This document shows, one piece after another, positions 5,070-32,840 of a stretch of DNA of 35,639 bases. The stretch comes from an uncultured Lachnospiraceae bacterium. Lineage in GTDB: Bacteria; Bacillota; Clostridia; Lachnospirales; Lachnospiraceae. The position numbers and the translations under genes were made by a program. Where the stretch lies: NCBI GenBank assembly GCA_946615865.1, contig CAMOIJ010000001.1, positions 1-35,639 on the forward strand, written 5' to 3'. The first letter of the stretch is position 1; each line of letters opens with the position of its first letter. The notes beneath the pieces are model-generated. The model made no database searches. It saw only the letters and a program-made list of their open reading frames with translations, and was not told the DNA's origin.

Positions 5070-5650
5070 CTCAAACAGCAGAAATGGTTCAAATCAAGTT
5101 TATTGCCGCTGTAATGCCCCTGGAGGTGCTCCAGCGGCACTCAAACGGCAGAAACGCCACAAATCAAGTTTATTGCCGCTGTAATGCCCCTGGAGGTGCT
5201 CCAGCGGCACTCAAACGGCAGAAGACAAGCAAATCAAGCAAATTGCCGCTGAAGTGCCCCTGGACAACCTCCAGCGGCACTCAAACGGCAGAAGACAAGC
5301 AAATCAAGCAAATTGCCGCTGAAGTGCCCCTGGACAACCTCCAGCGGCACTCAAACGGCAGAAGACAAACAAATCAAGTTTATTGCCGCTGTAGTGCCCC
5401 TGGAGGTGCTCCAGCGGCACTCAAACGGCAGAAGACAAGCAAATCAAGCAAATTGCCGCTGAAGTGCCCCTGGACAACCTCCAGCGGCACTCAAACGGCA
5501 GAAACCAAACAAATCATGCTTATTGCCGCTGAAGTGCCCCTGGACAACCTCCAGCGGCACTCAAACGGCAGAAGACAAGCAAATCAAGCAAATTGCCGCT
5601 GAAGTGCCCCTGGACAACCTCCAGCGGCACTCAAACGGCAGCAAATCCCC
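5070..5650 (+). repeat. 70-bp palindromic tandem repeat array, 8 units
   Basis: The block AAATCAAG recurs at 5091, 5161, 5231, 5301, 5371, 5441, 5511 (AAATCATG) and 5581, always exactly 70 bases apart, with a decayed copy at 5651. Each unit holds a nested inverted repeat: an inner stem like AGTGCCCCTGGA paired with TCCAGCGGCACT, and outer TGCCG and CGGCA. Two unit versions alternate irregularly (loop GGTGC with TTTATTG, or loop CAACC with CAAATTG). Most of the array is open in all three forward frames because 70 is not a multiple of three and the unit lacks stops. I do not consider the resulting 172-codon frame a gene. The same family appears in reverse orientation at 16486-16857 and once at 18121-18170. 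Confidence 0.93.
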
Positions 5651-5673
5651 AAATCATTCCAAAACCTCCAAAC

Positions 5674-5723
5674 CGGTTGAACAACTATAAGAAAAGATAT
5701 TTGGCGTCATTATGTGATGCCTG
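5674..5723 (+). repeat. conserved 50-bp element, copy A
   Basis: This 50-base stretch matches 16986-17035 at 44 positions without gaps. It contains two small dyads, GTTGAACAAC and GGCGTCA with TGATGCC. Both copies lie between a 70-bp repeat array and a PD-(D/E)XK-type gene. Function unknown; it could be an element end, a regulatory site or a structured RNA piece. Confidence 0.8.
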
Positions 5724-5754
5724 TTCTTTTCCTGTATGCCGCCAGTGAAGCGCC

Positions 5755-5811
5755 TTGACTTTTACCTGTTCCGAGACTATGTTATTTTTATCGGAGCAGT
5801 TTCTTTGCTCC
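5755..5811 (+). promoter_or_regulatory. sigma-70 promoter and leader hairpin of the Rpn-type nuclease gene
   Basis: TTGACT (5755-5760) and TATGTT (5778-5783) are 17 bases apart. A small hairpin, GGAGCA with TGCTCC (5793-5811), begins close to the predicted transcription start. The leader to ATG 5954 would be about 165 bases and holds no recognisable riboswitch. Confidence 0.6.
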
Positions 5812-5953
5812 ACAGCAGAAAATTCACTTCTTACATCCTATCTGATATTTCCTGCTGACAACAACCATTCACACCAGGCAGGGAATACCGGATTTGCATG
5901 TATTTGACATGTCGACTCCCTGTCTGTCACACATCCCAGTCAGGAGGTACGAC

Positions 5954-6901
5954 ATGAGTTTCAACAATCAGTATTTTGACACCGTCGATGGTTCTTCTAA
6001 CAGGAGTTCTTCCCTTTCCAAGTGGGAAAACCTGACGATAAAGGACCGCTTTCTTTTTGCTAAGGTGATGGGACAGAAAGAAAACTGTCTTCCCCTTCTG
6101 CAAAGGCTTTTCCCCGAACTCCAGATTACAGATATCCGATACGTCGAAGCAGAAAAGACTGTAGAAGGCTCCATTGACTCCAAAGCAGTCCGCCTCGACG
6201 TTTACGTGAGGGATTCTGACCAGCGCGCTTTTACGCTGGAAATGCAAGTATATGAAAAAGGGAATCTTCCCATGCGAAGCCGTTACTATGGTTCAATGAT
6301 GGATGAAAACCTGCTCGGTACCGGGCAGGATTACGACGAAATCATGCCGGCTTACGTCATCTTCATCTGTCCCTTTGACTTGTTCGGGAAAGGATTTCAT
6401 CGCTATACTTTCATGAATTTCTGTAAAGAGGATCTCTCCCTTCCGCTTGGAGATGGTTCTGCCAAAATATTCCTCAACACGAAAGGGACTGCAAACGATG
6501 TGTCAAAAGATGTTCTGGCATTTCTAAATTATGTTAATGGAATTGATGCACCTGATGATGAATATGTTTTGCTGCTCGATCAGGCTGTAAAAAGGGCCAG
6601 AAAGAATTCTGTATGGAGGCGTGAGTTTATGAATTACGAGATGGAAATGAGATACGAGAGGAAAATGGCAAGAAAAGAAGGGCTCGCGGAAGGTCGTGCG
6701 GAAGGTCGTGCAGAAGGTGAACAGCTTAAACTGATTCAGCTTGTTGCAAAAAAGGTCCTGAAAGGAAAGAGTCTTTCAGTGATTTCATCTGAACTGGAAG
6801 AGACAGAGGATTCCATCAAGCCAATTTACGATTTGCTGGTTTCAACCCCCGGAGCAGCTCCGGAAGAGATTCTTGATCGCTTACAGGAAAAGATGTGTTA
6901 A
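5954..6901 (+). CDS. Rpn-family PD-(D/E)XK nuclease (recombination-promoting nuclease / transposase-like)
   Basis: A 315-residue protein of the Rpn/YhgA-like group, DNA nucleases that promote RecA-independent recombination in E. coli. The N-terminal part reads LTIKDRFLFAKVM, the usual opening of the family. The catalytic core is seen as LDVYVRD with Asp82 and LEMQVYEK with Glu96 and Gln98, the D..ExQ form of the PD-(D/E)XK site. Next comes a typical RSRYYGSMM. The C-terminus has a charged EG-repeat hinge, EGLAEGRAEGRAEG at about 242-255, built from a 12-base DNA repeat, then a helical tail. ATG 5954 is chosen because AGGAGG at 5942-5947 precedes it; an upstream in-frame ATG at 5894 has none. 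The gene sits beside the 70-bp array and the 50-bp element, with the unknown gene 48 bases downstream. Confidence 0.9.
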   Translation: MSFNNQYFDTVDGSSNRSSSLSKWENLTIKDRFLFAKVMGQKENCLPLLQRLFPELQITDIRYVEAEKTVEGSIDSKAVRLDVYVRDSDQRAFTLEMQVYEKGNLPMRSRYYGSMMDENLLGTGQDYDEIMPAYVIFICPFDLFGKGFHRYTFMNFCKEDLSLPLGDGSAKIFLNTKGTANDVSKDVLAFLNYVNGIDAPDDEYVLLLDQAVKRARKNSVWRREFMNYEMEMRYERKMARKEGLAEGRAEGRAEGEQLKLIQLVAKKVLKGKSLSVISSELEETEDSIKPIYDLLVSTPGAAPEEILDRLQEKMC

Positions 6902-6949
6902 AGGCCTGTTGTACCGGCCGCTGCCAATTTGATCAAGGGAGATATCCAA

Positions 6950-7753
6950 ATGAGTACCTACGATCTGAAACGACTTGAAGTCGCCATCCAATATATCCGG
7001 CGCATGTCAGACGGCAAAAACCCCGTCACCAACAGGCCCGCCCCGGAAAATGAAGTTCTTAACAACATGAACGTACACCGCTGCCTGAAGTTCATCGACG
7101 AAGTGCTGTCCGACGTCCACAAAAGCGGCGGAACTGTCGGCATGGTCTCGCAGCGCGCCCTCAAACAATCAGTCTCAGAAATCTTTCCTTACGAGGCATT
7201 GGTGCAGTACCGGTATCTGCAAGACCAGCAGATCTCCTACTTCCTGAAACAGCTTGAGGAATATCTGCCGGAAGGTCAAAAAATACCCGTCCCCGCCACA
7301 ACGATCACTTTGTGGATGCGCGAAAACGGATATCTGGAGAAAAAAGTGCTTAATGACACCGGCAAGGAAAACTCCGTTCCCACCGAAAAAGGTGAGAAAC
7401 TCGGACTCTATACGGAGAAAGCCGGCGCCTATCCCAATGAGTACTACCGCGTCTTCTATAATGAGAACGCTCAGCGCTTCATCATTGACAACTTCCGCCG
7501 TATTCTGACCGAATCCGAGGAAATCCGTGAGCGAAACCGCAGAGAGAAGAAAAAAGATGGATCACCGCGCAGCGCACGGCAAAGTGCAGGCAATGTAACT
7601 CAGGAAAATGCTCCAAATAAGCAAAGCGTAGACAATTCATCGCCTCATGGCTTTGAGTCCTCAGAACCTGCTCCTGTGGAAGACCTCCCTCAGGAATACT
7701 ATGATATGCTCAGAGATGGATGGGAAACTTCAGACAATGGAGTGCCGTGGTGA
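6950..7753 (+). CDS. hypothetical protein, possible winged-helix-like middle
   Basis: A 267-residue soluble protein that I do not recognise. ATG 6950 follows AAGGGAG (6935-6941) by 8 bases. The first 190 residues look folded and mostly helical. The central TTITLWMRENGYLEKK, then PTEKGEKLGLYTE, then a Tyr-rich strand and AQRFIIDNFRRIL, recall a helix-turn-helix or winged-helix arrangement, but this is only an impression. Residues after about 200 are polar and probably disordered (KKKDGSPRSARQSAG onward), ending in an acidic-aromatic tail, EYYDMLRDGWETSDNG. It is 48 bases downstream of the Rpn-type nuclease and upstream of a strong terminator, so the two are probably co-transcribed. No membrane segment or signal peptide. 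Confidence 0.75.
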   Translation: MSTYDLKRLEVAIQYIRRMSDGKNPVTNRPAPENEVLNNMNVHRCLKFIDEVLSDVHKSGGTVGMVSQRALKQSVSEIFPYEALVQYRYLQDQQISYFLKQLEEYLPEGQKIPVPATTITLWMRENGYLEKKVLNDTGKENSVPTEKGEKLGLYTEKAGAYPNEYYRVFYNENAQRFIIDNFRRILTESEEIRERNRREKKKDGSPRSARQSAGNVTQENAPNKQSVDNSSPHGFESSEPAPVEDLPQEYYDMLRDGWETSDNGVPW

Positions 7754-7800
7754 GCGAATTTATTATTCTGTTTTCCGACATTCAAAGCGAGAGACAATAG

Positions 7801-7840
7801 AAAAACGCACAGAAGATAATCTTCTTCTGTGCGTTTTTTT
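7801..7840. terminator. bidirectional intrinsic terminator
   Basis: A perfect 12-bp stem, ACGCACAGAAGA (7805-7816) with TCTTCTGTGCGT (7823-7834), 6-base loop, flanked by A5 on the left and T7 on the right. It closes the nuclease operon on the plus strand and the convergent lipoprotein operon on the minus strand. Confidence 0.92.
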
Positions 7841-7855
7841 CATTCATTGCGTCAC

Positions 7856-9166
7856 CTAATAAACTGCATTCACTGCATATTCTGCCTGTGCGTGTGTAAA
7901 ACCCTCGAACTCGAGTTGTTCTACCAATCCGCTTCTGGAGAAAGAGGAATAATCCAAGTACTGCTTCGCCTTTTTAACCGCCTGCTCATTCCAATCGGCA
8001 CCGCAGTGATCCGCCGCATAAACAGCTTCGGAGTGAGAATAGCCTTCAAATTCGAGCTGCTCGATCAAACCTGTATATGAAAAAGCGGAATAGTTCAAAT
8101 ACTGATATGCTTTTTCAAGAGCATTTTTCTCTCCGAAAGATGCAGAACCGATATCCGATACAGAAGATGATCCAGATGAATTCCCTGCGTGATAGCTTTC
8201 CGAATTTGCTGATGACGAAGACGAAGTTGAGCCTGACAAACGATCCGCATAATTATACTTTACTGTTCCATTGTGAATCCATAAGATATAATCACTCTCA
8301 GTATATGAATGGCTAATGTTTAAATGATCTACCCAGAAAATATTAGCATTCTCAGCATTTCCTCCGATCTTTACAACAGCCAATAGTGATTCACTGATAG
8401 ATTTCATGGAATCCACAAGTTTCTGCCAAGAATCATTCAGTTTGGAACTCCTAGTATCCAAAGCCTCCCTAAGGTTGTCCGGCGCTTGAAAATAAACATT
8501 GAGTTCACTTTTTTCTTTAACATAGACAATCTCATGTTCATAATCTGCGAAGTTTTCATCCATGAGTTTCTCTATTTTTTTGAAAGTCTCTGATTCTTCG
8601 AAAGGAGCTTTATAATCTTCTACAGATTCCACCGAACCGTCTCCGCGATCCAACACATAATCACAGTTTTCAGCCCACATAATGTGCAGCTTATCTTTAC
8701 CAAAACAGAGATGAAAATCCTGCTCATTCCCATACAGATTCCCTTGTGGTTCCGATTCAAACAGATATCCTTCCTCATTTGAGTCTCTTACTTCACCGTC
8801 CCCAATCTCTCCCATGTAACCGGAATAAGTGACTGTGCTGTATACTATACCCCCGGAAAGGTAAAACGAAACGTCCGCACTGTAAACATTCCCTCTTTCT
8901 GTAATATTTGCGAACTTGCCGCTGCAGTCATTAAGATCTTTCAGCCTCTGAATGAATTCTGTCTGTTCCGAATTTATGGATGGATTGTTCTTTAACTTTT
9001 CATAAGCCTTATCAATCGGCAGATTTTCAGAAGTCATTATTTCTGTGTAAAGAGTATTATTTTCCGCTGTCTTACCGGAACTGCTGCACCCCGGTACAGT
9101 CAACAGACAAAACATCAAAGCCATAACAATTATCATTCTTTTTATGTGGATAGGATTTGTAGTCAA
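7856..9166 (-). CDS. lipoprotein with two C-terminal Ltp-type repeats
   Basis: About 436 residues. The N-terminus has a basic stretch (HIKR), a hydrophobic core and a lipobox ending TVPGC (Cys27), so it should be lipid-anchored outside the membrane. The middle 300 residues are acidic and not recognised. A Ser-rich linker leads to two similar blocks of about 45 residues, each with a YL..S.FS..GL motif, then EQLEFEG and a final A.YA. They match the host cell surface-exposed lipoprotein (Ltp) repeat, found in phage superinfection-exclusion lipoproteins and in many Firmicutes surface proteins. No good ATG exists: GGTGGTGA at about 9174-9181 best fits TTG 9166, although TTG 9172 is possible; an earlier TTG at 9229 overlaps the upstream gene. 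It follows the lipoprotein gene ending at 9195 by 28 bases. Confidence 0.8.
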   Translation of the reverse strand: MTTNPIHIKRMIIVMALMFCLLTVPGCSSSGKTAENNTLYTEIMTSENLPIDKAYEKLKNNPSINSEQTEFIQRLKDLNDCSGKFANITERGNVYSADVSFYLSGGIVYSTVTYSGYMGEIGDGEVRDSNEEGYLFESEPQGNLYGNEQDFHLCFGKDKLHIMWAENCDYVLDRGDGSVESVEDYKAPFEESETFKKIEKLMDENFADYEHEIVYVKEKSELNVYFQAPDNLREALDTRSSKLNDSWQKLVDSMKSISESLLAVVKIGGNAENANIFWVDHLNISHSYTESDYILWIHNGTVKYNYADRLSGSTSSSSSANSESYHAGNSSGSSSVSDIGSASFGEKNALEKAYQYLNYSAFSYTGLIEQLEFEGYSHSEAVYAADHCGADWNEQAVKKAKQYLDYSSFSRSGLVEQLEFEGFTHAQAEYAVNAVY

Positions 9167-9194
9167 ATGCAATTCACCACCTGTACATTGAGTA

Positions 9195-10874
9195 TTATTT
9201 GTAGAAATCAAACGCCGAAATGACATCAACTTTTACTTCGCCATTTTCATATGTGAACGGTATCTCGATTTTTCCGTCAATATCATTAGTGCAGATAATA
9301 TATCCGTTCTTTACTTCATATGTTCCGCCGCTTGTATTGAACGACGTCCTCAGTTCATACTCATTGGGCTCCCAGAATTCTATCTGATATTTCATGTTGT
9401 TCGCATTGACATCCCACTGATAGCCGTTGATCTCTTCCTTAACCGCTGCAACCACTTCATTGTCAGCATCCTCAAGAGCCCACATCTCTTCTTCATAACC
9501 TTCAGGATCTGCCTTTTCTGCCACTTCCTCGGGACTATCGCAGAAAATTATCTCATCCGTTGTTAATCTGACCTTGTCCGCATCGGGTATTTGTGATTTA
9601 GATATGCTAATAGTTCTGCCGGCTTCGAGATCTCCTTTAGGAACTTCGAAAGTCTCGACAAATTTTCCTTCTTCGCCTACATATACTTCTTTCAAATAAG
9701 CACCATTATGATAATTCCTTAAATATCGGCTTTCCTTTTTTGACCTTACGGCTTTATAAGTATTTGCATCGTTTATCTTCACATTCATACTCTTGCTGTC
9801 GATCTTAAGATTCTGATCCTTTGTGTGAGCAGTATAGAATATATACAGAAACCGCATGTTTTCATTGTCTTTGGTCGAATAAGAATTATCGACATATACT
9901 CCATCAATAGTCATATAGTCGGTTTCTTTAACCGCGGATCCTCCTTTATTGTCCCCTGATGCTGTCTCCACCGTTCCGTTTACTGCGTCATTAATGTTGA
10001 TCCTGTATTCTTCTCTGCCGATATACTTATCCCCATCGCTGATGGAAATCTGAATTTTGGCATCCAGTGTGTACAGATCTTCCAAGGAGTCCAATGCAGT
10101 CGGATCTGGGCTTGTATTATAGTAAATATCATAAGTATATGTTTTTGTTTTCCCGGGAGCAGGACCAGAATTACCGTCCTGCATTGATGCAATAACACTT
10201 TCGTCCTTAATATAAGCATCCTGCAAATTGAAAAGGTATTCCTTATCACTGTTATTGTGGACTTTCAGCGTTATATATTTTTCTATTTGAGGTTCTCTTC
10301 CAGCCCAATTCACTTTCTTTTCAAAGAATTGTGTCAACTCTACTGTCACATATTCATTATCAAGAAGGATCGTGTCAGTGAATTCTGTTTTTTTGTTTTC
10401 CTCAGTCGATCCTGCTGCCGATGTATCCGTTTGGGATGTTGGTAAAGCGGCTGCTGTCTCTGCCTTTTCTTTGTATTCCTTAAGCTTATCCTCACTGAGT
10501 CTTGCAAAGGTTATACCATTAACCTCAAGGGTCTCATTATCTCCTTCTTTTTTCTTTACATAAGGATATTCTGCCTCAGCGACCTTTATCTTAACAGTTT
10601 CGGCATCTTCCTCCCATTTGACATCTGACTTATAAGCCCAGGGTAAATAATCCGGTATATTCTCTCCTTCATATTTCACTTCACTCAGTGTTATCCCTGA
10701 ACCGCCTTCTTCTAAAATTAAAATGGCCCCTTCTTCTGCCTTCCATCCTCCTACACCAGAAAACGGCCCGACATTCGCTGTTCCGGCGCCGCCGGTACCA
10801 GAACTGCTTCCACAGCTGCAGAGTATTCCTGCTAACACCAATAACATGGCAAGGATCGTAATTCTTTTTTTCAT
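9195..10874 (-). CDS. large lipoprotein of unknown function
   Basis: 559 residues starting at ATG 10874 after a G-rich ribosome binding site. The signal peptide MKKRITILAMLLVLAG ends in the lipobox ILCSC (Cys21), followed by a Gly/Ser spacer. The rest is acidic, Tyr-rich and strand-rich, with no recognised catalytic motif. Pieces such as YITLKVHNNSDKEYLF and DTILLDNEYVTVELTQF resemble the immunoglobulin-like DUF4352/DUF5067-type modules common in Firmicutes lipoproteins, and the end reads like a small beta-domain. It probably forms an operon with the downstream Ltp-type lipoprotein. Both are divergent from the ribbon-helix-helix gene, across a palindromic AT-rich region. Confidence 0.8.
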   Translation of the reverse strand: MKKRITILAMLLVLAGILCSCGSSSGTGGAGTANVGPFSGVGGWKAEEGAILILEEGGSGITLSEVKYEGENIPDYLPWAYKSDVKWEEDAETVKIKVAEAEYPYVKKKEGDNETLEVNGITFARLSEDKLKEYKEKAETAAALPTSQTDTSAAGSTEENKKTEFTDTILLDNEYVTVELTQFFEKKVNWAGREPQIEKYITLKVHNNSDKEYLFNLQDAYIKDESVIASMQDGNSGPAPGKTKTYTYDIYYNTSPDPTALDSLEDLYTLDAKIQISISDGDKYIGREEYRININDAVNGTVETASGDNKGGSAVKETDYMTIDGVYVDNSYSTKDNENMRFLYIFYTAHTKDQNLKIDSKSMNVKINDANTYKAVRSKKESRYLRNYHNGAYLKEVYVGEEGKFVETFEVPKGDLEAGRTISISKSQIPDADKVRLTTDEIIFCDSPEEVAEKADPEGYEEEMWALEDADNEVVAAVKEEINGYQWDVNANNMKYQIEFWEPNEYELRTSFNTSGGTYEVKNGYIICTNDIDGKIEIPFTYENGEVKVDVISAFDFYK

Positions 10875-10937
10875 CTGCGCCCCCTATCATAAGATTTAAA
10901 AATTCATTCACGTCATTACACAACGTCTTTTAAAATA

Positions 10938-10981
10938 TAGTATATTATACTACTTTTAACTACTTAATACTACTTTATAAT
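10938..10981. promoter_or_regulatory. candidate operator/promoter between lipoprotein operon and RHH gene
   Basis: TAGTATATTATACTA at 10938-10952 is a palindrome around one base. It is followed by direct repeats of ACTACTT-like blocks (about 10949-10975) and TATAAT at 10976-10981. The divergent intergenic region of 130 bases is very AT-rich. Ribbon-helix-helix proteins usually bind short repeated sites like these, so autoregulation and control of the lipoprotein operon are plausible. Confidence 0.5.
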
Positions 10982-11004
10982 CTGTCCTCAGGAGAATCTT
11001 TATA

Positions 11005-11187
11005 ATGAGAGACATGAATACACAAAAGCCATTAAAAACCAAAGTGAGCATAACGCTTGACGAAGATGTGATCAGAAGAATCAGAGAACTGGCCGAAGCA
11101 GACGACCGCAACTTCAGCCAGTATATTAATCTTGTGCTAAAAAAACATCTGGAAAAGAAACATACCGATGATCATAAGCCGGAATAA
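11005..11187 (+). CDS. ribbon-helix-helix (CopG/Arc-type) DNA-binding protein
   Basis: A 60-residue protein. KVSITLDEDVIRRIRELAE followed by DRNFSQYINLVLKKHL has the beta-strand, helix, turn, helix layout of the MetJ/Arc/CopG fold, which binds DNA as a dimer through the paired strands. AGGAG at 10990-10994 precedes ATG 11005; a second ATG lies at 11014. No toxin gene follows (the next gene is convergent), so it is more likely a stand-alone regulator than an antitoxin. Confidence 0.85.
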   Translation: MRDMNTQKPLKTKVSITLDEDVIRRIRELAEADDRNFSQYINLVLKKHLEKKHTDDHKPE

Positions 11188-11219
11188 GCATTCAGTGCAG
11201 CCGTCAGAATACTTACAAG

Positions 11220-11840
11220 TCAAAGGTCCAAAAGCTGTTTCTTCTTACTCTCAAATTCTTCCTGTGTCAAAACTCCATTGTCCAAAAGTTCTTTATACTT
11301 TTTCAGTTGATCAGTTACGTCAGAAGTACCGTTATTTTCAGGAACTGCTTCCGAATTATCTGTCAACATTCCTTTGATTCCCAACACGCTGATGACGCAA
11401 ACCACTGTCAAAAGCGCACACTCAATATAAAAACCCCACGTAGGTACATATTCGTAATGCCCGTAGTATCCCCAGGTAGCAGTTCCACCCGGCTCACCGT
11501 TCGGAACAGTAGACACTATATCCATACAGCTTATGAGCGCGAATAATACCGTAACTGCCAATGGGGCAAAATAGCAGAACATAGTCAGTTGATTTCTGAT
11601 TTTCAAGCTCTGCATGACCAGGATCGTTATGCTCATTGCAGCAGCTGCTGCAATGAGCAAGGCAAGCCACAAATACCGGGAATAGAGGCTGACACCTTCA
11701 GACCACGCTTTAGTTGCATGGCCAACTCCCGGTGCCTCATTTTTCCAGTAGTTCATTGTGAATATGACGGGCATAAAAGACAACAGCAAAAAAATGCTGA
11801 TGGAAGCGATTGATATCAGATTTGCATGACTCTTTTTCAT
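11220..11840 (-). CDS. four-helix membrane protein with C-terminal SHOCT domain
   Basis: 206 residues. Four hydrophobic segments are visible: about 8-30 (LISIASISIFLLLSF), 55-76 (YLWLALLIAAAAAM), 84-108 and 133-155 (FYIECALLTVVCVISVL). Between segments 3 and 4 is a Gly/Tyr-rich loop (GGTATWGYYGHYEYV). The last 30 residues, DQLKKYKELLDNGVLTQEE and on to KKKQLLDL, are a classical SHOCT domain, a short helical hairpin thought to mediate oligomerisation. The function is unknown. It is convergent with the RHH gene. ATG 11840 follows an AAAGGA-type ribosome binding site. Confidence 0.85.
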   Translation of the reverse strand: MKKSHANLISIASISIFLLLSFMPVIFTMNYWKNEAPGVGHATKAWSEGVSLYSRYLWLALLIAAAAAMSITILVMQSLKIRNQLTMFCYFAPLAVTVLFALISCMDIVSTVPNGEPGGTATWGYYGHYEYVPTWGFYIECALLTVVCVISVLGIKGMLTDNSEAVPENNGTSDVTDQLKKYKELLDNGVLTQEEFESKKKQLLDL

Positions 11841-11862
11841 GGTCCTTTCTCCTTATCACGCG

Positions 11863-11898
11863 AAAAAATACCTGCAGGATTAAACTCCTACAGGTATT
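11863..11898 (-). terminator. intrinsic terminator of the kinase gene
   Basis: Read on the minus strand, AATACCTGTAGGA pairs with TCCTGCAGGTATT (one mismatch) and is followed by T6. It lies about 45 bases past the kinase stop codon and just upstream of the SHOCT gene. Confidence 0.85.
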
Positions 11899-11941
11899 CT
11901 AATAAACACTGATCTGCCTTTGGTGGGCTCTGCGCCCACTC

Positions 11942-14179
11942 CTAAAACTCCGTACTGATCATTCCCTCCCAGTATCCGATCTGCTCGCCCCCGTCCGCGT
12001 AGACCCATATTTTGTATGACCGGTCGAACAGATTATAGCTGCTTTCTTCTTCGGAATAATTCACCTCAGCTGTGTCTCCGCTCTTGTATTCCTTTCCGTC
12101 GCTCCAGGTATCAGAATCATTTCCGACGGGGTCGTCAATACGGAACGTAACTGTAGTCGTGGCATCCGGAGGGCCGCCGCTCAGCTTTGCTCTTATATAG
12201 GCTGACTGCATGGAGCCGAAAGAATATGCCATACCGGTGCTGATAGAGGCGCGCCATTTGTAAATCTCGTTCTGCAGATCCTCCGCACCCTCGTAATTGC
12301 TGTCAACCAGTTCCTCGATATATTTATATGTCGCAGAAGTCGGCTCTTCGCATGTGCTCTCGCAATAGCGATATTTTGCCTCCGCTCCACGCTCGTCTGC
12401 ATCCTTATATCCTGAAATGCTTTCAAAGCTTGTCACCGCAGCCTGGAAGCTTCCGTTTTCTGCCTCCCTTACTGCTTTGAGATAGATACTCTCCTTGTAT
12501 TTTTCCGCGGCGTCCTTATAGTCTCCTAGCTCGCTGTATCTTTTCGAAGATTTATCATATTCTTTCCCGGCAAAAGCCGCTTCCGCCTCTTCATAGAGAG
12601 TCTCCTGCTTCAATAAAGAGAGCTCATCGCTGTCTCCGACACCTGCATCCAGCAAAGCGTCATAAATCAGCGACGCCTTGTCCCAATGCTGTGATTCCCG
12701 CTCACCAGCCGCGCTTGTAAGGAGTTCTTTGTAAATGTCATCAAGCTCACTATCCGAATCAGTATCGTATTTTTCAAGTGCGTTAAGGGCATTTGCAATT
12801 ACGTGAATTCCTGCAGCGCTTCCGGTCTCCCTGAAGTCCTCCATAGCTTTTCTGGCTGCACTCAATGTATGGTCAACACCGGCCTCCCAATGCCGCTGTG
12901 CATCCACTGCCTCTTCTTCCCTGAGCTTATACAGCGCACTCAGTCCTTCTTCAAAAGATTTCCTTGCAATTTCCGCCTCGGCTTTTCCGTAAAGGCTTAT
13001 GGCCTCCCAGGTTGTCTCCTCCCCGTAATATCTTGTCAAAATATCCCTGATCGCATCAGCATTTTCCGTATTTCCTGCCAGATAGCACCGTTTCTGTGTA
13101 TCTGCTATTTCGTCGCGAACGGACTGCTTCTGCTCCGCCGTCATCTTGCTGTAGGGATGCTCCTCCGCAAACTTTTCGACCACGGTCTGGATCTTCTCGT
13201 CTGTGCCCTTTATCTGTTCAATGGCCGAAAGCTCCGCGCGGATCGCCTCCTCCTGCCGCGCCGGGTACACGATGAATCTCCATCCTGTCCCTGTCAGGAT
13301 CAACACTGCTGCAACGACAGCCGCTGCCAGCGCGATCCTTGCCCTGATCCTGTGGCTCTTGTTCATCGGGTCAAAGCCCGGGATCTTCTCAAATTTTTGA
13401 TCAAGGGCCGACGTGTGCTCCCTGATCCTCAGGATTTGCGCCTTCATCTGAGCGGCAGAAGTATAGCGCTTCTTCGGATCCATTTCCGTAGCCTTCTTCG
13501 CGATGCGATTTGCATCAACGTTCCCAGGCAGCATGCGCTCAATCAGCTTACCAAGGGCATACAGATCCGTTCTGACATCTGACTGGGCAAAGCCATACTG
13601 CTCAGGAGCAGCAAGACCCTGCGTGCCGATCATCATGGTGTCCTTGTCCTGGCCGGTTATGTATATTTTGGCAGCATCGTAATCAATGATCTTGACAATT
13701 CCATCGTCTGTCACCATGATATTGGAGGCCTTGATATCGCGGTGGATGATCGGAGGATCAGCACTATGCAGAAACTCCAGTCCGTCACAGATCTGCGAGA
13801 GGATGTCGATGCGTTCGGAAAAGGGAAGCCCCTGGGAGATACCGGCACTCTCGGATTCCGTCCTGCCTATACCTGAGGTTTCTGTTTCGCCGCTGCCGGA
13901 AGCCTCCGACGCCCGAAGGATCTCGTCAAGCGTCCGGCCCTGAATAAGCTCCTCGATGACAACAAGGCTCTCACCATCTTTCCAGAAAGCCTGTACAGCA
14001 GCCACATTGCGGTTTTTGTGATCCCGCAGAAAGGCGTAAACATGTTCATTGTAGACATCGAGTGTCTTTTTAAAATATAATTTCCCTGTGGGGACATCCC
14101 TGACGACAGATTTGCCGTCTTCCAGGATTTTTATTTCATCATAGAGCGCGTTTTCGCACAGTTTCTCAAGTTCTGTCAT
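11942..14179 (-). CDS. membrane Ser/Thr protein kinase with extracytoplasmic helical repeats
   Basis: 745 residues. The N-terminal 270 are a Hanks-type kinase: Lys37-Lys38 in YFKK as the ATP lysine, HRDIKASNIM at 146-155 as catalytic loop, DYDAAK at 166-171 in place of DFG, and APEQYG at 191-196. The glycine-rich loop is not recognisable, and an insert rich in Ser/Glu/Gly (about 92-117) follows the hinge. One membrane segment spans about 281-303. The extracytoplasmic part is helical with TPR-like repeats (AEAAFAGKEYDKSSKRYSEL, FQAAVTSFESISGYKDA) and ends in a beta-rich domain. ATG 14179 has a GGGGGAG site. It is divergent from an HTH gene with 62 bases between, and that protein may be its substrate. 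Activity is expected but the degenerate loop leaves some doubt. Confidence 0.88.
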   Translation of the reverse strand: MTELEKLCENALYDEIKILEDGKSVVRDVPTGKLYFKKTLDVYNEHVYAFLRDHKNRNVAAVQAFWKDGESLVVIEELIQGRTLDEILRASEASGSGETETSGIGRTESESAGISQGLPFSERIDILSQICDGLEFLHSADPPIIHRDIKASNIMVTDDGIVKIIDYDAAKIYITGQDKDTMMIGTQGLAAPEQYGFAQSDVRTDLYALGKLIERMLPGNVDANRIAKKATEMDPKKRYTSAAQMKAQILRIREHTSALDQKFEKIPGFDPMNKSHRIRARIALAAAVVAAVLILTGTGWRFIVYPARQEEAIRAELSAIEQIKGTDEKIQTVVEKFAEEHPYSKMTAEQKQSVRDEIADTQKRCYLAGNTENADAIRDILTRYYGEETTWEAISLYGKAEAEIARKSFEEGLSALYKLREEEAVDAQRHWEAGVDHTLSAARKAMEDFRETGSAAGIHVIANALNALEKYDTDSDSELDDIYKELLTSAAGERESQHWDKASLIYDALLDAGVGDSDELSLLKQETLYEEAEAAFAGKEYDKSSKRYSELGDYKDAAEKYKESIYLKAVREAENGSFQAAVTSFESISGYKDADERGAEAKYRYCESTCEEPTSATYKYIEELVDSNYEGAEDLQNEIYKWRASISTGMAYSFGSMQSAYIRAKLSGGPPDATTTVTFRIDDPVGNDSDTWSDGKEYKSGDTAEVNYSEEESSYNLFDRSYKIWVYADGGEQIGYWEGMISTEF

Positions 14180-14241
14180 GGATACTCCCCCTCGGCTTTC
14201 GCACAACCCGATTATAACATGAACTTACGGGGAGATATATC

Positions 14242-14676
14242 ATGGACGAGACAACCACTAAAAAGCTGACTGATGTACTGTCAAACATCGACAACACGCG
14301 GGATATGGAGAAGTTTATGGAGCAGCCCAAAGTCGCGGACAGTTTCAAGAATTTCCCCGACTACTATCGCTCCCTCCCTGCCGTACAACAGGCTGAGAGC
14401 GGAGAACTCATCCAGAAGAGCGGCTTGGAGCGTTCCTACTACTACCAGGTTATGAAAGGCACCCGGAGCCCAAGCCGTGACAAAGTACTTCGCCTGTGTA
14501 TTGCAGCCAGACTGAGCCTTCGGGAGACGACCCGCGCTCTGGAGCTGAGCGGCAATGCCCCTCTGTACCCCAAGAATCGCCGTGACATCATCCTTACTGT
14601 CGCGATCAACCAATCCGCTTCTGTGGACGATGCCAATCTCCTGCTATTCAAATATGGGGAGGAGCCTCTTGCCTGA
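14242..14676 (+). CDS. small HTH (XRE-like) protein divergent from the kinase
   Basis: 144 residues. Residues about 45-105 look like an XRE-type helix-turn-helix: SGELIQKSGLERSYYYQVMKG, then SPSRDKVLRLCIAARLSLRE, the phage-repressor-like arrangement. The N-terminal 40 residues are polar and rich in Thr and Asp (MDETTTKKLTDVLSN), a form common in phosphorylated regulatory tails. The C-terminal part (NRRDIILTVAINQS) is probably for dimerisation. ATG 14242 follows GGGGAG. The shared promoter region with the kinase suggests joint regulation. A terminator follows at 14726. Confidence 0.8.
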   Translation: MDETTTKKLTDVLSNIDNTRDMEKFMEQPKVADSFKNFPDYYRSLPAVQQAESGELIQKSGLERSYYYQVMKGTRSPSRDKVLRLCIAARLSLRETTRALELSGNAPLYPKNRRDIILTVAINQSASVDDANLLLFKYGEEPLA

Positions 14677-14725
14677 GAATTTCTGTCCGGTATTAACAAG
14701 ATATTGTTTTCTTAACACTTGACGC

Positions 14726-14763
14726 AAAAAGCCGCCGAACCCCTCAAAAGGTCCGGCGGCTTT
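14726..14763. terminator. bidirectional intrinsic terminator
   Basis: AAAGCCGCCG pairs with CGGCGGCTTT around the loop AACCCCTCAAAAGGTC, with A and T runs on its two sides. It serves the HTH gene on the plus strand and the DUF362 gene on the minus strand. Confidence 0.9.
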
Positions 14764-16457: not shown

Positions 16458-16485
16458 TTTGAGTGGCTGTGAGTTTTTGGTTTTC

Positions 16486-16857
16486 CTGCCGGTTGAGTGC
16501 CCCTGGAGCTTCTCCAGCGGCACTTCGGTGGCAATTTACTTGATTTATGGGCTTTCTGCCGGTTGAGTGCCCCTGGAGCTTCTCCAGCGGCACTTCGGTG
16601 GCAATTTGCTTGATTTATGGGCTTTCTGCCGGTTGAGTGCCCTTGGAGCTTCTCCAGCGGCACTTCAGCGGCAATTTGCTTGATTTATGGGCTTTCTGCC
16701 GGTTGAGTGCCCCTGGAGAGGCTCCAGCGGCACTTCAGCGGCAATTTGCTTGATTTTTAGACATTCTGCCGGTTGAATGCCGCTGGACGCACTCAAAAGG
16801 CACTCAACCGGCACCCACGCGGCAGAAGACAAACAAATCAAGTCAAAGCCGGCAAAA
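16486..16857 (-). repeat. 70-bp palindromic tandem repeat array 2, inverted relative to array 1
   Basis: GGTTGAGTGC recurs at 16491, 16561, 16631 and 16701, and as GGTTGAATGC at 16771, again exactly 70 bases apart. The unit is the reverse complement of the unit at 5070-5650, with the same nested palindrome (GTGCCCCTGGAG and CTCCAGCGGCAC). The right end (about 16790-16850) switches to the other orientation, giving inward-facing ends. Confidence 0.92.
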
Positions 16858-16873
16858 AGCACCTGTACTCCTC

Positions 16874-16902
16874 TTGTTTTTATTATCAGAGAGTGCTATC
16901 TT
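16874..16902 (+). promoter_or_regulatory. possible promoter of the second PD-(D/E)XK gene
   Basis: TTGTTT (16874-16879) and TATCTT (16897-16902) are 17 bases apart. A short dyad, CATGCCT with AGGCATG, follows at about 16917-16934. Confidence 0.4.
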
Positions 16903-16985
16903 TGTCTCATGTTTCATGCCTTGTCAGGCATGGACCACTTCTTTAAGAATCTGAAATTCATTGCGATTTCCGCAAAGTCCCAACA

Positions 16986-17035
16986 CGGTTGAGCAACTAT
17001 AAGAAAAGTCTTTTGGCGTCAATTTGTGATGCCTG
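16986..17035 (+). repeat. conserved 50-bp element, copy B
   Basis: 44 of 50 positions match 5674-5723, without gaps. Here the element contains the first in-frame ATG (17029) of the following PD-(D/E)XK gene, so it overlaps the coding start. Confidence 0.8.
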
Positions 17036-18087
17036 ATTTGTCATTTCAAAAAGGGGGGAGGCCTATTACTATTAATGAATTATTGAATGAGCAGGAAACC
17101 CTGCGGCAGATCCGGAAACATCATATGCAGAAGCTTTTTGCCTGGGATAATCCGCCGGGAATCCTTCTGTGCCACAAGCATGGAAATTGGATCCGGTGGC
17201 AAAAAAGGGAGTTCAAGAACGGTCATGCCATCACGACAGATCTTCGCAAAACTGAGACCGAACTCGCCGAAAAGCTGGCTGTTAATCTGTATCGCATCAT
17301 CTGCATCCAAACCATTCAGAAGCAGCTGAATGATCTTGATAAGTTGATCAGAAGTCGATACTCCAATCGGCAGAGCAAGCTGGATGATATTGCACAAGAA
17401 GAATCTCAATCGGAACCTGCAGATATGGCAAAAAATAGTCCGGGCGCCAGTATTTTGGCAGAGGGGGCAATTCGCAAGCTGTTTTACAGGGTTCGGAATT
17501 GCCCCGGCGAACCTGCAGATTTCTTTCATGTAGATTCGCCTTACAGGCAGCTCATTATTCATTTCCTGCGAAGAGAATATGCCGGTGTTATTGATTGGTA
17601 TAATGGAGATTTTCCGCAGAACCAAGAGCATCCGGAGAACTTACTGTATGAAGTGAAACTCGGGTACAAAGTACGCTCCAAATCCGAAGTGTTGATCGCT
17701 GACCGCTTGTATGATGAAGGAATTCTCTTTCATTATGAAGAGCTGCTTTACCTGACCGAGAGTGATCCTTATCCTGACTTTTATATTCTATTTTCGCCTT
17801 TGAAGAAGTATATCTGGGAGCATTTCGGGGCAATGGACAAAAACAACTACTTCCATCGCACCAAGGGAAGAGTTCTTAATTACATGGATAGTAAGTGGTT
17901 TCCGGGGATCAATATGGTTACAACCTATGAGACAAAAGGAAATCCTCTAGAAGCATCGCAGGTCGATCAAAAGGTGAGCATGCTAAAAACCTTGTATCGG
18001 CTTGCATTCCCTGATCTGCCGCCGGATGAGTCTTTTAATATGTATGATCTTGCGGATTATGCTAAGCTCTACGAGATGGAAGATTGA
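17029..18087 (+). CDS. PD-(D/E)XK endonuclease-like protein
   Basis: 352 residues from ATG 17029. The C-terminal half has a PD-(D/E)XK-like pattern: YKVRSKSEVLIADRLYDEG (SKSE at 217-220), YPDFYIL (Asp250) and YIWEHFG (Glu264), then FPGINMVTTYETKGNPL. This layout is seen in uncharacterised restriction-like proteins of Clostridia. The N-terminal 120 residues are helical and charged, with an HGNWIRW strand. The start is uncertain. ATG 17029 has no ribosome binding site and lies in the 50-bp element, while a strong GGGGGGAGG at 17053-17061 is followed only by an in-frame ATT at 17071. A non-AUG start or a mutated start codon is therefore possible. The gene is flanked by 70-bp family repeats on both sides. 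No partner methylase is nearby. Confidence 0.78.
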   Translation: MPDLSFQKGGRPITINELLNEQETLRQIRKHHMQKLFAWDNPPGILLCHKHGNWIRWQKREFKNGHAITTDLRKTETELAEKLAVNLYRIICIQTIQKQLNDLDKLIRSRYSNRQSKLDDIAQEESQSEPADMAKNSPGASILAEGAIRKLFYRVRNCPGEPADFFHVDSPYRQLIIHFLRREYAGVIDWYNGDFPQNQEHPENLLYEVKLGYKVRSKSEVLIADRLYDEGILFHYEELLYLTESDPYPDFYILFSPLKKYIWEHFGAMDKNNYFHRTKGRVLNYMDSKWFPGINMVTTYETKGNPLEASQVDQKVSMLKTLYRLAFPDLPPDESFNMYDLADYAKLYEMED

Positions 18088-18120
18088 AGGCTGGTTAAGT
18101 TTCTTGTCTTGTATGGTTTG

Positions 18121-18170
18121 TCGCCGTTGAAGTGCCCCTGGAGATGCTCCAGGGGCACTCAAATGGCAGA
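18121..18170 (+). repeat. single 70-bp-family unit, perfect hairpin
   Basis: GTGCCCCTGGAG (18132-18143), loop ATG, CTCCAGGGGCAC (18147-18158), flanked by TCGCCGTTGAA and TCAAATGGCAGAA as in the arrays. It sits between the stop codons of two convergent genes. It may act as a stem-only transcription barrier, but it has no T tract. Confidence 0.85.
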
Positions 18171-18175
18171 ATTAA

Positions 18176-22029: not shown

Positions 22030-22520
22030 GTGAGTATTTATTGTTGGATGGAGCCTATATGGCGTTTAATGCCATGGCATCCATCGAATACGCGTGTGGC
22101 TTGAAAAGGATGGGACCTATCTAAGCACTTCTGGCTGTACCCTACATCCATACAAGAAAATTTCTTATTTGGTTGGAACCTTTATATGCGCTTCTGGCTA
22201 CACCCTACATCCTTACAGAGAAAGCTTCCTAATGGATGGAGAGTTTTAAATCAGACATGCTTAACAGCCCATCCGATTTAACGCAAAGCCGGAAGTCGAT
22301 GGGCAGTTTATCCCAAACAAGCTTTTTACAACCCATCCGATTTAACGCAAAGCCGGAAGTCGATGGGCAGTTTATCCCAAACAAGCTTTTTACAACCCAT
22401 CCGATTTAACGCAAAGCCGGAAGTCGATGGGCAGTTTATCCCAGACAAGCTTTTTACAACCCATCCGATTTGACGTAGACTCGGAAGTCGATGGACTGTT
22501 TATCCCAGACATGCTTTAAT
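22030..22520 (+). repeat. 64-bp palindromic tandem repeat array 1
   Basis: CCCATCCGATTT starts at 22268, 22332, 22396 and 22460, exactly 64 bases apart. Each unit pairs CCCATC with GATGGG around about 23 bases and carries an AAGCTT in the spacer. To the left, 22030-22260 holds more diverged copies with the TTCTGGCT block at 22129 and 22192. The unit is the reverse complement of that at 28860-29285 (shared AAGCTTG, GCACAAAC-like and GATGGG blocks). Confidence 0.88.
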
Positions 22521-28677: not shown

Positions 28678-28767
28678 TCCTTGGACCTTTGCTGTAACAA
28701 CACGAAACTGTGCGGTAAGTTGCTTTACTTATTCTACCATTAATGCGGGGATGCGTCTATTGCGGGT

Positions 28768-28840
28768 GCAGGGGACCTCTGGGGGGTGCAGGGGACCTCT
28801 GGGGTAGTTTGCACTGGTGCAGGTGAGCTCTAGGGTAGTT
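28768..28840 (-). repeat. cluster of the 22-bp family, three partial copies
   Basis: ACCTCTGGGG-type copies at about 28775 and 28795 and a diverged GAGCTCTAGGGTAGTTT at 28824-28840, all in reverse orientation, with GTGCAGG spacers. They lie about 90 bases upstream of sirC. Confidence 0.75.
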
Positions 28841-28859
28841 TAAGTCTTGTCTGGAACAA

Positions 28860-29285
28860 ATTTTCCATCCACTTCTTACTTGTCGTCAAATCCGATGGAG
28901 CTTGAAAAGCTTGTCTGGCACAAACTCCCCATCCTCCTAGAGCTTGCCGTCAAATCCGATGGGGCCTGAAAAGCTTGTCTGGCACAAACCCTCCATCCAC
29001 CTCCGGTTTGCCGTCAAATCCGATGGGGCTTGAAAAGCTTGTCTGGCACAAACTCTCCATCCTCCTAGGGCTTGCCGTCAAATCCGATGGTATGTGAAGA
29101 GTTCCAGGCACAAAAATCGCTCCAGCCAATATGGCTTTTCCTTTTGTCCGATGGAGGTTCTATTCATGACCGCACAAATTGGTCCATCCATATCCCTGTC
29201 CAGACAAATCCGATGGTGCAACTCACGCGAAACGCTTGAACTGGCTCCATCCAATCCAAGGCTTCAGCCGAGTTCGATGGGCCGG
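28860..29285 (-). repeat. 64-bp palindromic tandem repeat array 2, seven units
   Basis: CCGATGG recurs at 28892, 28956, 29020, 29084, 29148, 29210 and (as TCGATGG) 29274, giving spacings of 64, 64, 64, 64, 62 and 64. Units pair CCATC with GATGG and include GAAAAGCTTGTCTGGCACAA in the first four. Copies decay toward the right. The unit is inverted relative to 22030-22520. No ORF with a good ribosome binding site was found in 28678-29381. Confidence 0.88.
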
Positions 29286-29317: not shown

Positions 29318-29400
29318 GCACCCAGAGGTCTCTCATACACAGGTGCAAAGCCACCCCAGAGGTCTCTCATACAGGTGCAAACTACCCCAGAGGTCTCTTA
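29318..29400 (+). repeat. cluster of the 22-bp family, three copies, supplying the bioY 3' end
   Basis: CCCAGAGGTCTCT occurs at about 29321, 29355 and 29387 in forward orientation with CATACA-CAGGTGCAA spacers. The third copy overlaps the bioY stop codon. Confidence 0.88.
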
Positions 29401-29993: not shown

Positions 29994-30112
29994 AGGAAAA
30001 CTCCTTGTTGGTTTGTGTTGGTTCGATAGTCATTATATTACCATTTTTCGTTTTGCGCGTCTGTTGCGCAGGCAACCTGGAAAGACAGCCCCTTCGGCGG
30101 TAAAGCCGACAA

Positions 30113-30276
30113 AGAGACCTCTGGGGTAGTTTGTCCCTAGGCAACCGCAGGCAAAGCCGGCAATGAGACCTCTGGGGTAGTTTGTCCACACCTGTGGACA
30201 AACTACCCCAGAGGTCTCTTGCATATTCCCCCCGTTCAGTTAGAATAAAAATGACAAACTACCCCAGAGGTCTCTT
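30113..30276. repeat. 22-bp family: four copies including a 54-bp perfect palindrome
   Basis: Reverse copies lie at 30113-30134 and 30165-30186, forward copies at 30198-30218 and 30254-30276; the core is CTACCCCAGAGGTCTCT. The middle two form an exact inverted repeat with 26-bp arms (30165-30190 and 30193-30218) around CC. The last copy ends 5 bases before the ABC exporter start and contributes AGAGGT as its likely ribosome binding site. Confidence 0.92.
30219..30246 (+). promoter_or_regulatory. likely promoter of the ABC exporter / HypB genes
   Basis: TTGCAT (30219-30224) and TAGAAT (30241-30246) are 16 bases apart, between two 22-bp family copies and 35 bases before ATG 30281. The -35 begins at the end of the palindrome's right arm. 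Confidence 0.5.
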
Positions 30277-30280
30277 AAAA

Positions 30281-32020: not shown

Positions 32021-32027
32021 TCAAAAC

Positions 32028-32113
32028 AAGAGACCTCTGGGGTAGTTTGTCCCCAGTTGGGGTCAAACTACCCCAGAGGTCTCTTGCACACGAACAAACT
32101 ACCCCAGAGGTCG
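32028..32113. repeat. 22-bp family: near-perfect 54-bp palindrome plus an extra copy
   Basis: A reverse copy and a forward copy form an inverted repeat at 32030-32083 (20-bp arms, one mismatch, then CCCC/GGGG and the loop AGTT). A third copy at 32094-32113 diverges after AGAGGTC. The palindrome starts 9 bases after the ABC exporter stop, so the exporter is bracketed by two such palindromes. Confidence 0.9.
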
Positions 32114-32136
32114 ATTACACATCAAAGGAGCCCTCC

Positions 32137-32829
32137 ATGGCAAATATCTACACTGACCCCGTAAAAATCATCGAACTCAAAGAATCCGTCCTCGAAGATA
32201 ACAACAAGGACGCCCAGGATCTCCGCAGCGAACTGAAAGCCCAGAAGACCTGCCTCCTCAACCTGATGTCCGGGCCCGGAAGCGGCAAGACCACCACTCT
32301 CCTCGCCTTGGACAAATACCTCAGAGGTCGCCTCAAATGGGGCGTCATGGAGGCCGACATCGACTCCGACGTGGACGCGAGGACAATCCTGGCCGCAGGC
32401 ATTCCCGCGGTCCAGCTGCACACGGGCGGAATGTGCCATCTGGACGCCGACATGACGAGGCAGGGCCTGAAAGCCCTCTTTGAGAGCACCGATGAGCATC
32501 TGGATCTTGTTGTCCTCGAGAACATCGGCAACCTTGTCTGCCCCGCCGAATTCGACACCGGCGCGGCCATCAAAATGACCATCCTCAGCGTTCCCGAAGG
32601 CGACGACAAGCCGGCCAAGTACCCCCTCATGTACAAGGAATGCGACCTGATGGTCGTCAACAAGATCGACGCGCTGCCGGTCTTCGATTTTGACAAGGAG
32701 AAGGCGGAACGCTTTGCAAAACATAGAAACCCCGACATCAAAATATTCTACATCTCCGCCCGTACAGGCGAGGGCGTGGAAGCGCTTGCCGAGGAGATCA
32801 TAAGACGAGTTGAGGCTTGGAACGCATAA
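32137..32829 (+). CDS. hypB: HypB-like nickel-metallochaperone GTPase, copy 1
   Basis: 230 residues. Walker A is GPGSGKTT (46-53). The metal-binding Cys-His is at 100-101 (GGMCHLDADM) and the second Cys at 135 (NIGNLVCPAEFD), as in HypB dimers that bind nickel between subunits. VVNKID is the base-recognition motif. The high-affinity N-terminal CxxCGC site and the His-rich stretch of some HypBs are absent. HypB inserts nickel into NiFe-hydrogenase or other nickel enzymes. AAAGGAG is 6 bases before ATG 32137. The start of copy 2 follows 11 bases after this stop. No hypA, other hyp genes or hydrogenase genes lie in the window. Confidence 0.88.
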   Translation: MANIYTDPVKIIELKESVLEDNNKDAQDLRSELKAQKTCLLNLMSGPGSGKTTTLLALDKYLRGRLKWGVMEADIDSDVDARTILAAGIPAVQLHTGGMCHLDADMTRQGLKALFESTDEHLDLVVLENIGNLVCPAEFDTGAAIKMTILSVPEGDDKPAKYPLMYKECDLMVVNKIDALPVFDFDKEKAERFAKHRNPDIKIFYISARTGEGVEALAEEIIRRVEAWNA

Positions 32830-32840
32830 AGGAGACAATC

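What the first reader, a model, noticed from the sequence alone, without database searches (positions are those of the whole stretch)
5070..7753. 70-bp palindromic arrays and a shared 50-bp element beside both PD-(D/E)XK-type genes
The sequence shows two arrays of the same 70-bp unit, in opposite orientation, at 5070-5650 and 16486-16857. After each comes a 50-bp element (44 of 50 identical) and then a gene with a PD-(D/E)XK-like site (5954-6901, Rpn family; 17029-18087). A single unit also lies right after the second gene. Established knowledge: RAYT transposases (HUH fold) are tied to REP palindromes, and Rpn proteins promote recombination. Inference: these nucleases may recognise or spread the repeats, forming a repeat-nuclease system not based on HUH chemistry.
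Basis: partly seen in the sequence, partly recalled or inferred. Interest (0 to 1): 0.8.

Follow-up and report, generated by a model that had tools for sequence, protein, structure and literature searches.

The report
Nuclease genes with palindromic repeat arrays
A family of nuclease-like proteins in gut and rumen bacteria often sits beside tandem arrays of palindromic DNA, with different arrays for different branches of the family, which looks like a gene-and-repeat partnership built on a different enzyme from the one known case.

Summary
The arrays, shared element and lone unit are real. The Rpn link is incidental: two sister genomes have that gene in place without array or element. The link to the second gene ("pd", 17029-18087) holds. 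Array 2, promoter, leader, pd and lone unit form a 1,689-bp block (16483-18171) bounded by inverted units and missing as one piece in relative G068. The 50-bp element is the 3' part of a ~140-nt leader found before pd-family genes (all 10 full-length matches in the genus); the copy before Rpn is a truncated stray. Among 80 pd-family loci, tandem arrays lie within 500 bp upstream of pd in 20 of 67 testable loci against 4 of 268 neighbouring genes (p=5e-12); two thirds show none. Units differ between pd branches; the window's unit recurs beside one pd homologue only 39% identical. Units are also dispersed: 12 places in the own genome, other contigs in 5 of 10 other genomes. Best reading: a PD-(D/E)XK, homing-endonuclease-like protein paired with its own palindromes, working like REP/RAYT without HUH chemistry. 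Binding, cutting and spreading are inferred, not shown.

The parts
16483..18171 (+). pd block: inverted units at both ends, absent as one piece in G068
   Evidence: own aligns to G068 up to 16482 and from 18172, one extra base in G068; present in G003 and G070
16486..16813 (-). array 2: five 70-bp palindromic units, the last degenerate
16874..16902 (+). probable promoter TTGTTT-17-TATCTT, conserved before paralogues
   Evidence: read; alignment
17029..18087 (+). pd gene: nuclease-like protein with invariant RSKSE, D250, E264-H265 (true start uncertain, 17026 to 17065)
18123..18171 (+). lone unit, right border of the block
5090..5641 (+). array 1: 7.9 units of 70 bp, no pd gene beside it; absent in G070 and G068
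22264..22517 (.). 64-bp array whose unit family also flanks the own pd paralogue on contig C10
28846..29090 (.). 64-bp array of the same C10-type unit family, inverted to the one at 22264

Best explanation
The pd family is a group of PD-(D/E)XK-type, homing-endonuclease-like proteins, branches of which are paired with their own palindromic unit. The unit is kept as a tandem array beside the gene (mostly directly upstream, in a few loci as inverted arrays on both sides) and in several genomes is also dispersed through intergenic regions. Shown here: the association and its enrichment, unit types that go with pd types, dispersed gene-less arrays, an empty site exactly at unit borders, changing unit number at orthologous sites, and single units inverted on the 70-bp grid. 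Inferred: the protein recognises and cuts its own palindrome as a hairpin or cruciform, and repair of the break from another copy expands, homogenises and inverts units and now and then seeds a new array or carries the gene block along, a homing-like and REP/RAYT-like cycle with hydrolytic instead of HUH chemistry. The leader, in the pd mRNA between promoter and start, most likely tunes expression of the enzyme.
Confidence: 0.5

Rival explanations
1. Passenger or hot-spot: the arrays are ordinary hairpin tandem repeats that grow by replication slippage in non-essential intergenic gaps, and pd genes are accessory cargo that happens to land or survive in such gaps.
For: Two thirds of pd loci have no array. 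Most window-type arrays are gene-less. Copy number varies as slippage would give. Other repeat families fill the same gaps in relatives.
Against: The excess holds against genes of the same loci and against gaps of similar length. Rpn homologues, also accessory nuclease genes, show it in 2 of 20 loci, both the window locus, and Y1 genes in 0 of 12. The window's unit recurs beside a pd 39% identical.
Confidence: 0.25
2. RNA-controlled toxin, like type III toxin-antitoxin: the upstream tandem hairpins are transcribed as an RNA that restrains a toxic nuclease.
For: Tandem repeats directly upstream of a nuclease-type gene is the type III layout (PMC4627078, passages). Many arrays end 4-180 bp before the start codon in one orientation. 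PADLOC similarity to defence candidates.
Against: Arrays also lie downstream (6 of 67), on both sides inverted and scattered without the gene. Single units are inverted within arrays. The fold differs from the known type III toxins (recalled).
Confidence: 0.13
3. Operator or binding-site cluster: pd binds the units only to control its own gene or to organise DNA, without cutting or spreading them.
For: Arrays beside the promoter side of the gene; 70-bp grid kept within +/-1-2 bp across loci; conserved stem pattern.
Against: Invariant nuclease-type residues argue for catalysis. The empty site at unit borders and the gene-less dispersed arrays are not explained.
Confidence: 0.12

Closest known systems
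REPtron: RAYT (TnpA-REP) with REP/BIME repeats
   Same: Intergenic imperfect palindromes with conserved stem mismatches, combined in direct and inverted orientation, dispersed through the genome and tied to a gene that they flank (PMC8266576, passages).
   Different: The protein is not a Y1/HUH enzyme; no GTAG beside the palindrome in the unit consensus; longer units in strict tandem arrays. True Y1 genes occur in these genomes, and two of ten RAYT-length ones have another palindrome nearby.
Homing endonuclease I-Bth0305I (EDxHD type)
   Different: Not in an intron; the presumed target is a repeat; cutting of an empty site is untested.
Type III toxin-antitoxin (ToxIN, CptIN, TenpIN)
   Same: Tandem repeats directly upstream of a nuclease-type gene (PMC4627078, passages).
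   Different: Other fold (recalled for the toxins), longer units, arrays also downstream, on both sides and gene-less in the genome.
PADLOC candidate defence proteins PDC-S68 / PDC-S69
   Same: Their nuclease end matches pd residues 199-318; 81 of 81 homologues match PDC-S68.
   Different: Those PDC-S68 models are about 1,200-1,270 residues long; pd is a small protein with another N-terminal part.
Rpn family (TIGR01784/PF12784)
   Same: Gene 5954-6901 of the finding is a member.
   Different: Not linked to the repeats; Rpn proteins are reported as toxin-antitoxin/anti-phage genes (PMC10327210, start of abstract seen in the listing).

Membership tests
REPtron (RAYT/REP) | Y1/HUH transposase as the repeat-linked protein | tested here: not met
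   pd has no Pfam hit, invariant RSKSE/D/EH pattern, PD-(D/E)XK-type matches; Y1 genes of these genomes are elsewhere and without the unit
REPtron (RAYT/REP) | GTAG-like tetranucleotide beside the palindrome | tested here: not met
   48-nt consensus of 135 units read by eye, no GTAG
REPtron (RAYT/REP) | Imperfect palindromes, dispersed in intergenic regions, in direct and inverted combinations | tested here: met
REPtron (RAYT/REP) | Gene accompanied by its own repeats | tested here: met
   window block; family-wide only 20 of 67 upstream
Homing endonuclease (EDxHD) | Catalytic-domain fold | tested here: inconclusive
Homing endonuclease (EDxHD) | Cuts the empty target site | not testable with these tools
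   needs purified protein
Insertion sequence or transposon | Terminal inverted repeats | tested here: met
   inverted units at both borders of 16483-18171
Insertion sequence or transposon | Target-site duplication | tested here: not met
   none visible against G068, by eye
Type III toxin-antitoxin | Toxin of a known type III family | tested here: not met
   no Pfam family at E<=1 for the window pd and none shared by more than 9 of 81 homologues; PD-(D/E)XK-type matches instead
Type III toxin-antitoxin | Upstream repeats transcribed and processed as antitoxin RNA | not testable with these tools
   no expression data
Rpn family (TIGR01784/PF12784) | Profile score over the curated cut-off, gene 5954-6901 | tested here: met
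   114.1 bits against 52.1; 52.1 against 27.4

The most novel reading that the evidence does not exclude
A second, independently evolved kind of REPtron: a free-standing homing-type nuclease that recognises its own palindrome as a cruciform or hairpin and, through break repair, grows, flips and spreads those palindromes and at times its own gene block. In the genus of the window it has a dedicated structured leader RNA that acts as regulator, or even as an RNA partner of the enzyme.
Probability: 0.3. Interest if true: 0.9.

Novelty: categorically new. Interest (0 to 1): 0.78.

Why it matters
REP sequences are the known case of bacterial palindromes tied to a dedicated enzyme, and the enzymes of that case are, as far as I recall, all HUH transposases. 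A PD-(D/E)XK, homing-type family with its own palindromes would mean that such gene-repeat partnerships arose more than once. It would give a testable cause for tandem hairpin arrays in gut and rumen Lachnospiraceae, and a set of natural enzyme-palindrome pairs, different in each branch, for work on structure-specific cleavage.

Tried and rejected
RAYT as owner of the 70-bp unit: Y1_Tnp genes occur in all 4 genomes searched, but the unit profile gives only chance-level hits in the 23 loci around them. Of ten RAYT-length loci, two (G070, G003) have the palindrome GACCTCTGGGGTAGTTTG near the gene and a third (own) a related one; the first type also lies in the window at about 30099-32121.

Rpn as part of the system: rejected. 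G045 has arrays but no Rpn match at 1e-10.

50-bp element as promoter, terminator or mobile element: rejected in favour of a pd leader fragment. At locus 1 it lies upstream of what reads as the Rpn promoter (TTGACT-17-TATGTT), which is intact in G070 and G068.

Rfam: nothing at gathering score in the window, chance-level hits for the leader. Leader model over the 80 family loci: all five loci of the window's genus match, the other 75 only at E 0.13 or worse.

Single hairpins upstream of pd: slightly longer than before control genes (mean 9.4 against 8.7 bp, Mann-Whitney p=0.002) but no clear excess of strong ones (11 of 70 against 26 of 321 at 12 bp or more, p=0.07). The association is with tandem arrays.

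Leader hairpins: against shuffles the 5' hairpin reaches p<0.05 in 3 of 10 sequences and the 3' one in 1 of 10; fold z-scores of five leaders are -1.1 to -2.8. No formal covariation count was run, so the RNA structure is suggestive only.

PDB by sequence: only chance-level rows. Foldseek: none at E<=0.001. The N-terminal part of pd was not predicted or searched alone.

Literature: no paper linking such arrays to a PD-(D/E)XK-type gene was seen in the listings (open-access PMC only; capped lists). This does not prove absence.

Full report
WHAT IS IN THE WINDOW. Array 1 (5090-5641, 7.9 x 70 bp) and array 2 (16486-16813, 4.3 units plus a degenerate one) carry the same palindromic unit in opposite orientation. 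A lone inverted unit follows the second gene (18123-18171), and a 56-bp element occurs twice (86%). The first gene (5954-6901) is an Rpn-family gene. The second (17029-18087, 'pd') has no Pfam or NCBIfam family. The genome is a 2.68-Mb draft in 106 contigs, 88% complete. Relatives G003, G070 and G068 have the contig lengths of the Lachnospiraceae MAGs RUG14002, RUG13037 and RUG12657, so the host is an uncultured Lachnospiraceae, probably from the rumen (the meaning of RUG is recalled). The names cupin, azlC, trpA and ComEC below are recalled from the sequence and were not searched.

THE 50-BP ELEMENT IS A LEADER FRAGMENT. The pd paralogues own_C43 and G003_C50 (52% aa) share with pd a promoter region and a ~140-nt leader with a nearly invariant core, TGCGATNTCCGCAAAGTYCCA..ACG. 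A covariance model searched over 62 genus genomes gave 12 matches in 6 genomes. Ten are full leaders, and all ten precede a pd-family gene: the window pd and its orthologues in G003 and G070, six genes 51-55% identical, and one in G007 45% identical. The other two are the locus-1 copies in own and G003. The locus-1 copy resembles only the 3' part and lies upstream of what reads as the Rpn promoter, so it is a stray. Outside the genus no leader was found. The 5' hairpin keeps pairing with changed sequence (for example CATGCC/GGCATG, TTCTTCTT/AAGAAGAA, CTCTTC/GAAGAG; read), which is suggestive but was not tested formally; shuffle tests are weak.

RPN IS INCIDENTAL. G070 and G068 have the same Rpn gene in place. 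Where the window has array 1 plus the leader fragment (about 680 bp) they share 38 bp of other sequence. Of 20 Rpn-homologue loci, 2 have a tandem array within 1.5 kb, both this locus.

THE PD BLOCK HAS AN EMPTY SITE AT UNIT BORDERS. In G068 the cupin-like gene and the next gene are adjacent. Own sequence aligns up to 16482 and again from 18172, with one extra base in G068. The missing 1,689 bp begin and end with inverted copies of the unit and hold array 2, promoter, leader, pd and the lone unit. No target-site duplication is visible, and gain against loss is not proven. Own, G003 and G070 carry the block with 5, 5 and 2 units on the left and 1, 5 and 1 on the right.

DISPERSED GENE-LESS ARRAYS. 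The unit lies at 12 places on 9 contigs of the own genome, two of them the borders of the pd block. In the genus it is found in 5 of 62 genomes: own, G003, G045, G070 and weakly G007. Orthologous sites hold different numbers of units: 9 (own), 1 (G003), 6 (G045) and 2 (G070) at the C34 site; 5 (own), 3 (G070), 1 (G045), 1 (G068) and 0 (G003) at the C9 site. Spacing stays close to 70 bp even where a unit is inverted. Of nine array flanks, six had a match in G068; five of these six sites have no unit there and one has a single diverged unit. At the C56 site G003 and G068 have a RAYT-type palindrome instead. In 135 units, stem pairs 9-41 and 10-40 are usually mismatched (Watson-Crick in 0.34 and 0.20) between neighbours paired in 0.89 and 0.90; pairs 6-44, 7-43, 17-33 and 20-30 are also weak (0.43-0.64). 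Units are 85% alike within and 74% between loci.

OTHER PD GENES HAVE OTHER ARRAYS. Own_C43 (at least two units, then the contig ends) and G003_C50 have a 72-bp array of GAGCCCCTAGA-N6-TCTAGGGGCTC downstream. G068_C64 has a 71-bp array upstream. G070_C131 has about two units upstream at a contig end. G065_C18 has a unit just downstream and an array about 0.9 kb upstream of the leader. Own_C10 has 63-bp arrays about 0.7 and 1.9 kb away on either side, inverted to each other, and own_C1:118k has 62-bp arrays upstream. Own_C34 and own_C17 have none by TRF. The C10 unit family is also that of the window arrays 22264-22517 and 28846-29090. At the azlC-pd-trpA locus the own/G003 allele has the C50-type array downstream. 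The G068 and G070 copies (99% identical to each other) are another allele: in G070 trpA follows directly, and G068 has its own array upstream; the corresponding other side is cut by a contig end in each.

FAMILY-WIDE TEST. 36 of 80 have a TRF array (period 45-110, at least 1.8 copies) within 1.5 kb of pd or touching it, and 8 of 80 have one further out. I left out the five loci of the window's genus, two short ORFs and loci with too little flank. Arrays then lie within 500 bp upstream in 20 of 67 pd genes against 4 of 268 other genes of the same loci (p=4.6e-12), and downstream in 6 of 67 against 3 of 268 (p=0.003). With array-free gaps of at least 200 bp it is 13 of 47 against 1 of 53 (p=2e-4). 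The loci are not independent: at 45% aa identity they fall into 24 clusters, one of 42 members with arrays in 14; 12 of the 24 clusters have arrays in at least half of their members. Genus controls by the same rule within 1.5 kb: pd 9 of 24, Rpn 2 of 20 (both the window locus), cupin-like 5 of 30 (two of them the window block), Y1 0 of 12. The window-unit profile hits 3 of the 80 loci: the two window-type ones and L206 (UBA3692), where six copies lie directly upstream of a pd 39% identical. L220 has inverted arrays of one 51-bp unit on both sides of pd. Most arrays are upstream only and in one orientation. In ten genomes tested for dispersal, listed copies on other contigs appear in five (UBA3863 six contigs; UBA3692 ten and four for its two units; RGIG8055, RGIG406 and SRR5666654_bin.8 two each). 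In the other five only the home contig is listed; the list was cut at about E 1e-6.

READING. The gene-repeat association, its enrichment, the match of unit type and pd type, and the empty block are shown. Action of the enzyme on the repeats is inferred. I favour a homing/REPtron-like cycle with hydrolytic chemistry (0.5) over passenger arrays (0.25), an RNA-controlled toxin (0.13) and pure binding sites (0.12). By membership it is not a RAYT/REP system (HUH protein and GTAG not met), though its layout works like one. 'Categorically new' rates the pairing of palindromic arrays with a non-HUH nuclease family; only open-access PMC was searched.

LIMITS. Draft metagenome assemblies can collapse or break at tandem arrays, and several pd contigs end in or near arrays. 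Control genes are simple ORF picks. About two thirds of the family show no array by TRF.

Noticed in passing
window 28764-28841, 29321-29398, 30099-30223, 32015-32121: Palindromes of the type GAGACCTCTGGGGTAGTTTG, the kind that lies near two RAYT-length Y1 genes in relatives: a probable true REP/RAYT system in the same genus.
   Followed up: partly
window 17053-17076: A strong ribosome-binding site (GGGGGGAGG) is followed in frame by ATT where paralogues have TTG; pd may start at ATT 17065 (read).
   Followed up: no
window 7754-14726: About 7 kb present in the window's genome but missing at the same place in G003 and G070.
   Followed up: no
L220 4612-5446 and 6488-7959: Very long arrays around a pd gene: 8.2 x 102 bp upstream and 28.9 x 51 bp downstream, inverted to each other.
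   Followed up: partly
L251, L265, L266, L268, directly upstream of pd: In one pd branch the units are GCGGGGTA...TACCCCGC-type hairpins; the gene before the array looks ComEC-like by eye (name recalled).
   Followed up: no
L284 (G068:C167) about 1340-1440; L307 (G068:C46): Where own has 70-bp units, G068 has other short repeats in the same intergenic gaps, as if gaps are filled by different repeat families.
   Followed up: no
window 6686-6718; L135 (G068); G003:C22 6182-7174: The Rpn gene has a 12-bp coding repeat (AEGR) that differs in length between species; the G068 copy matches in pieces with in-frame stops.
   Followed up: no
window 32047-33536: Two adjacent HypB-like GTPase genes share a 203-bp stretch at 73% (family name recalled).
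   Followed up: no
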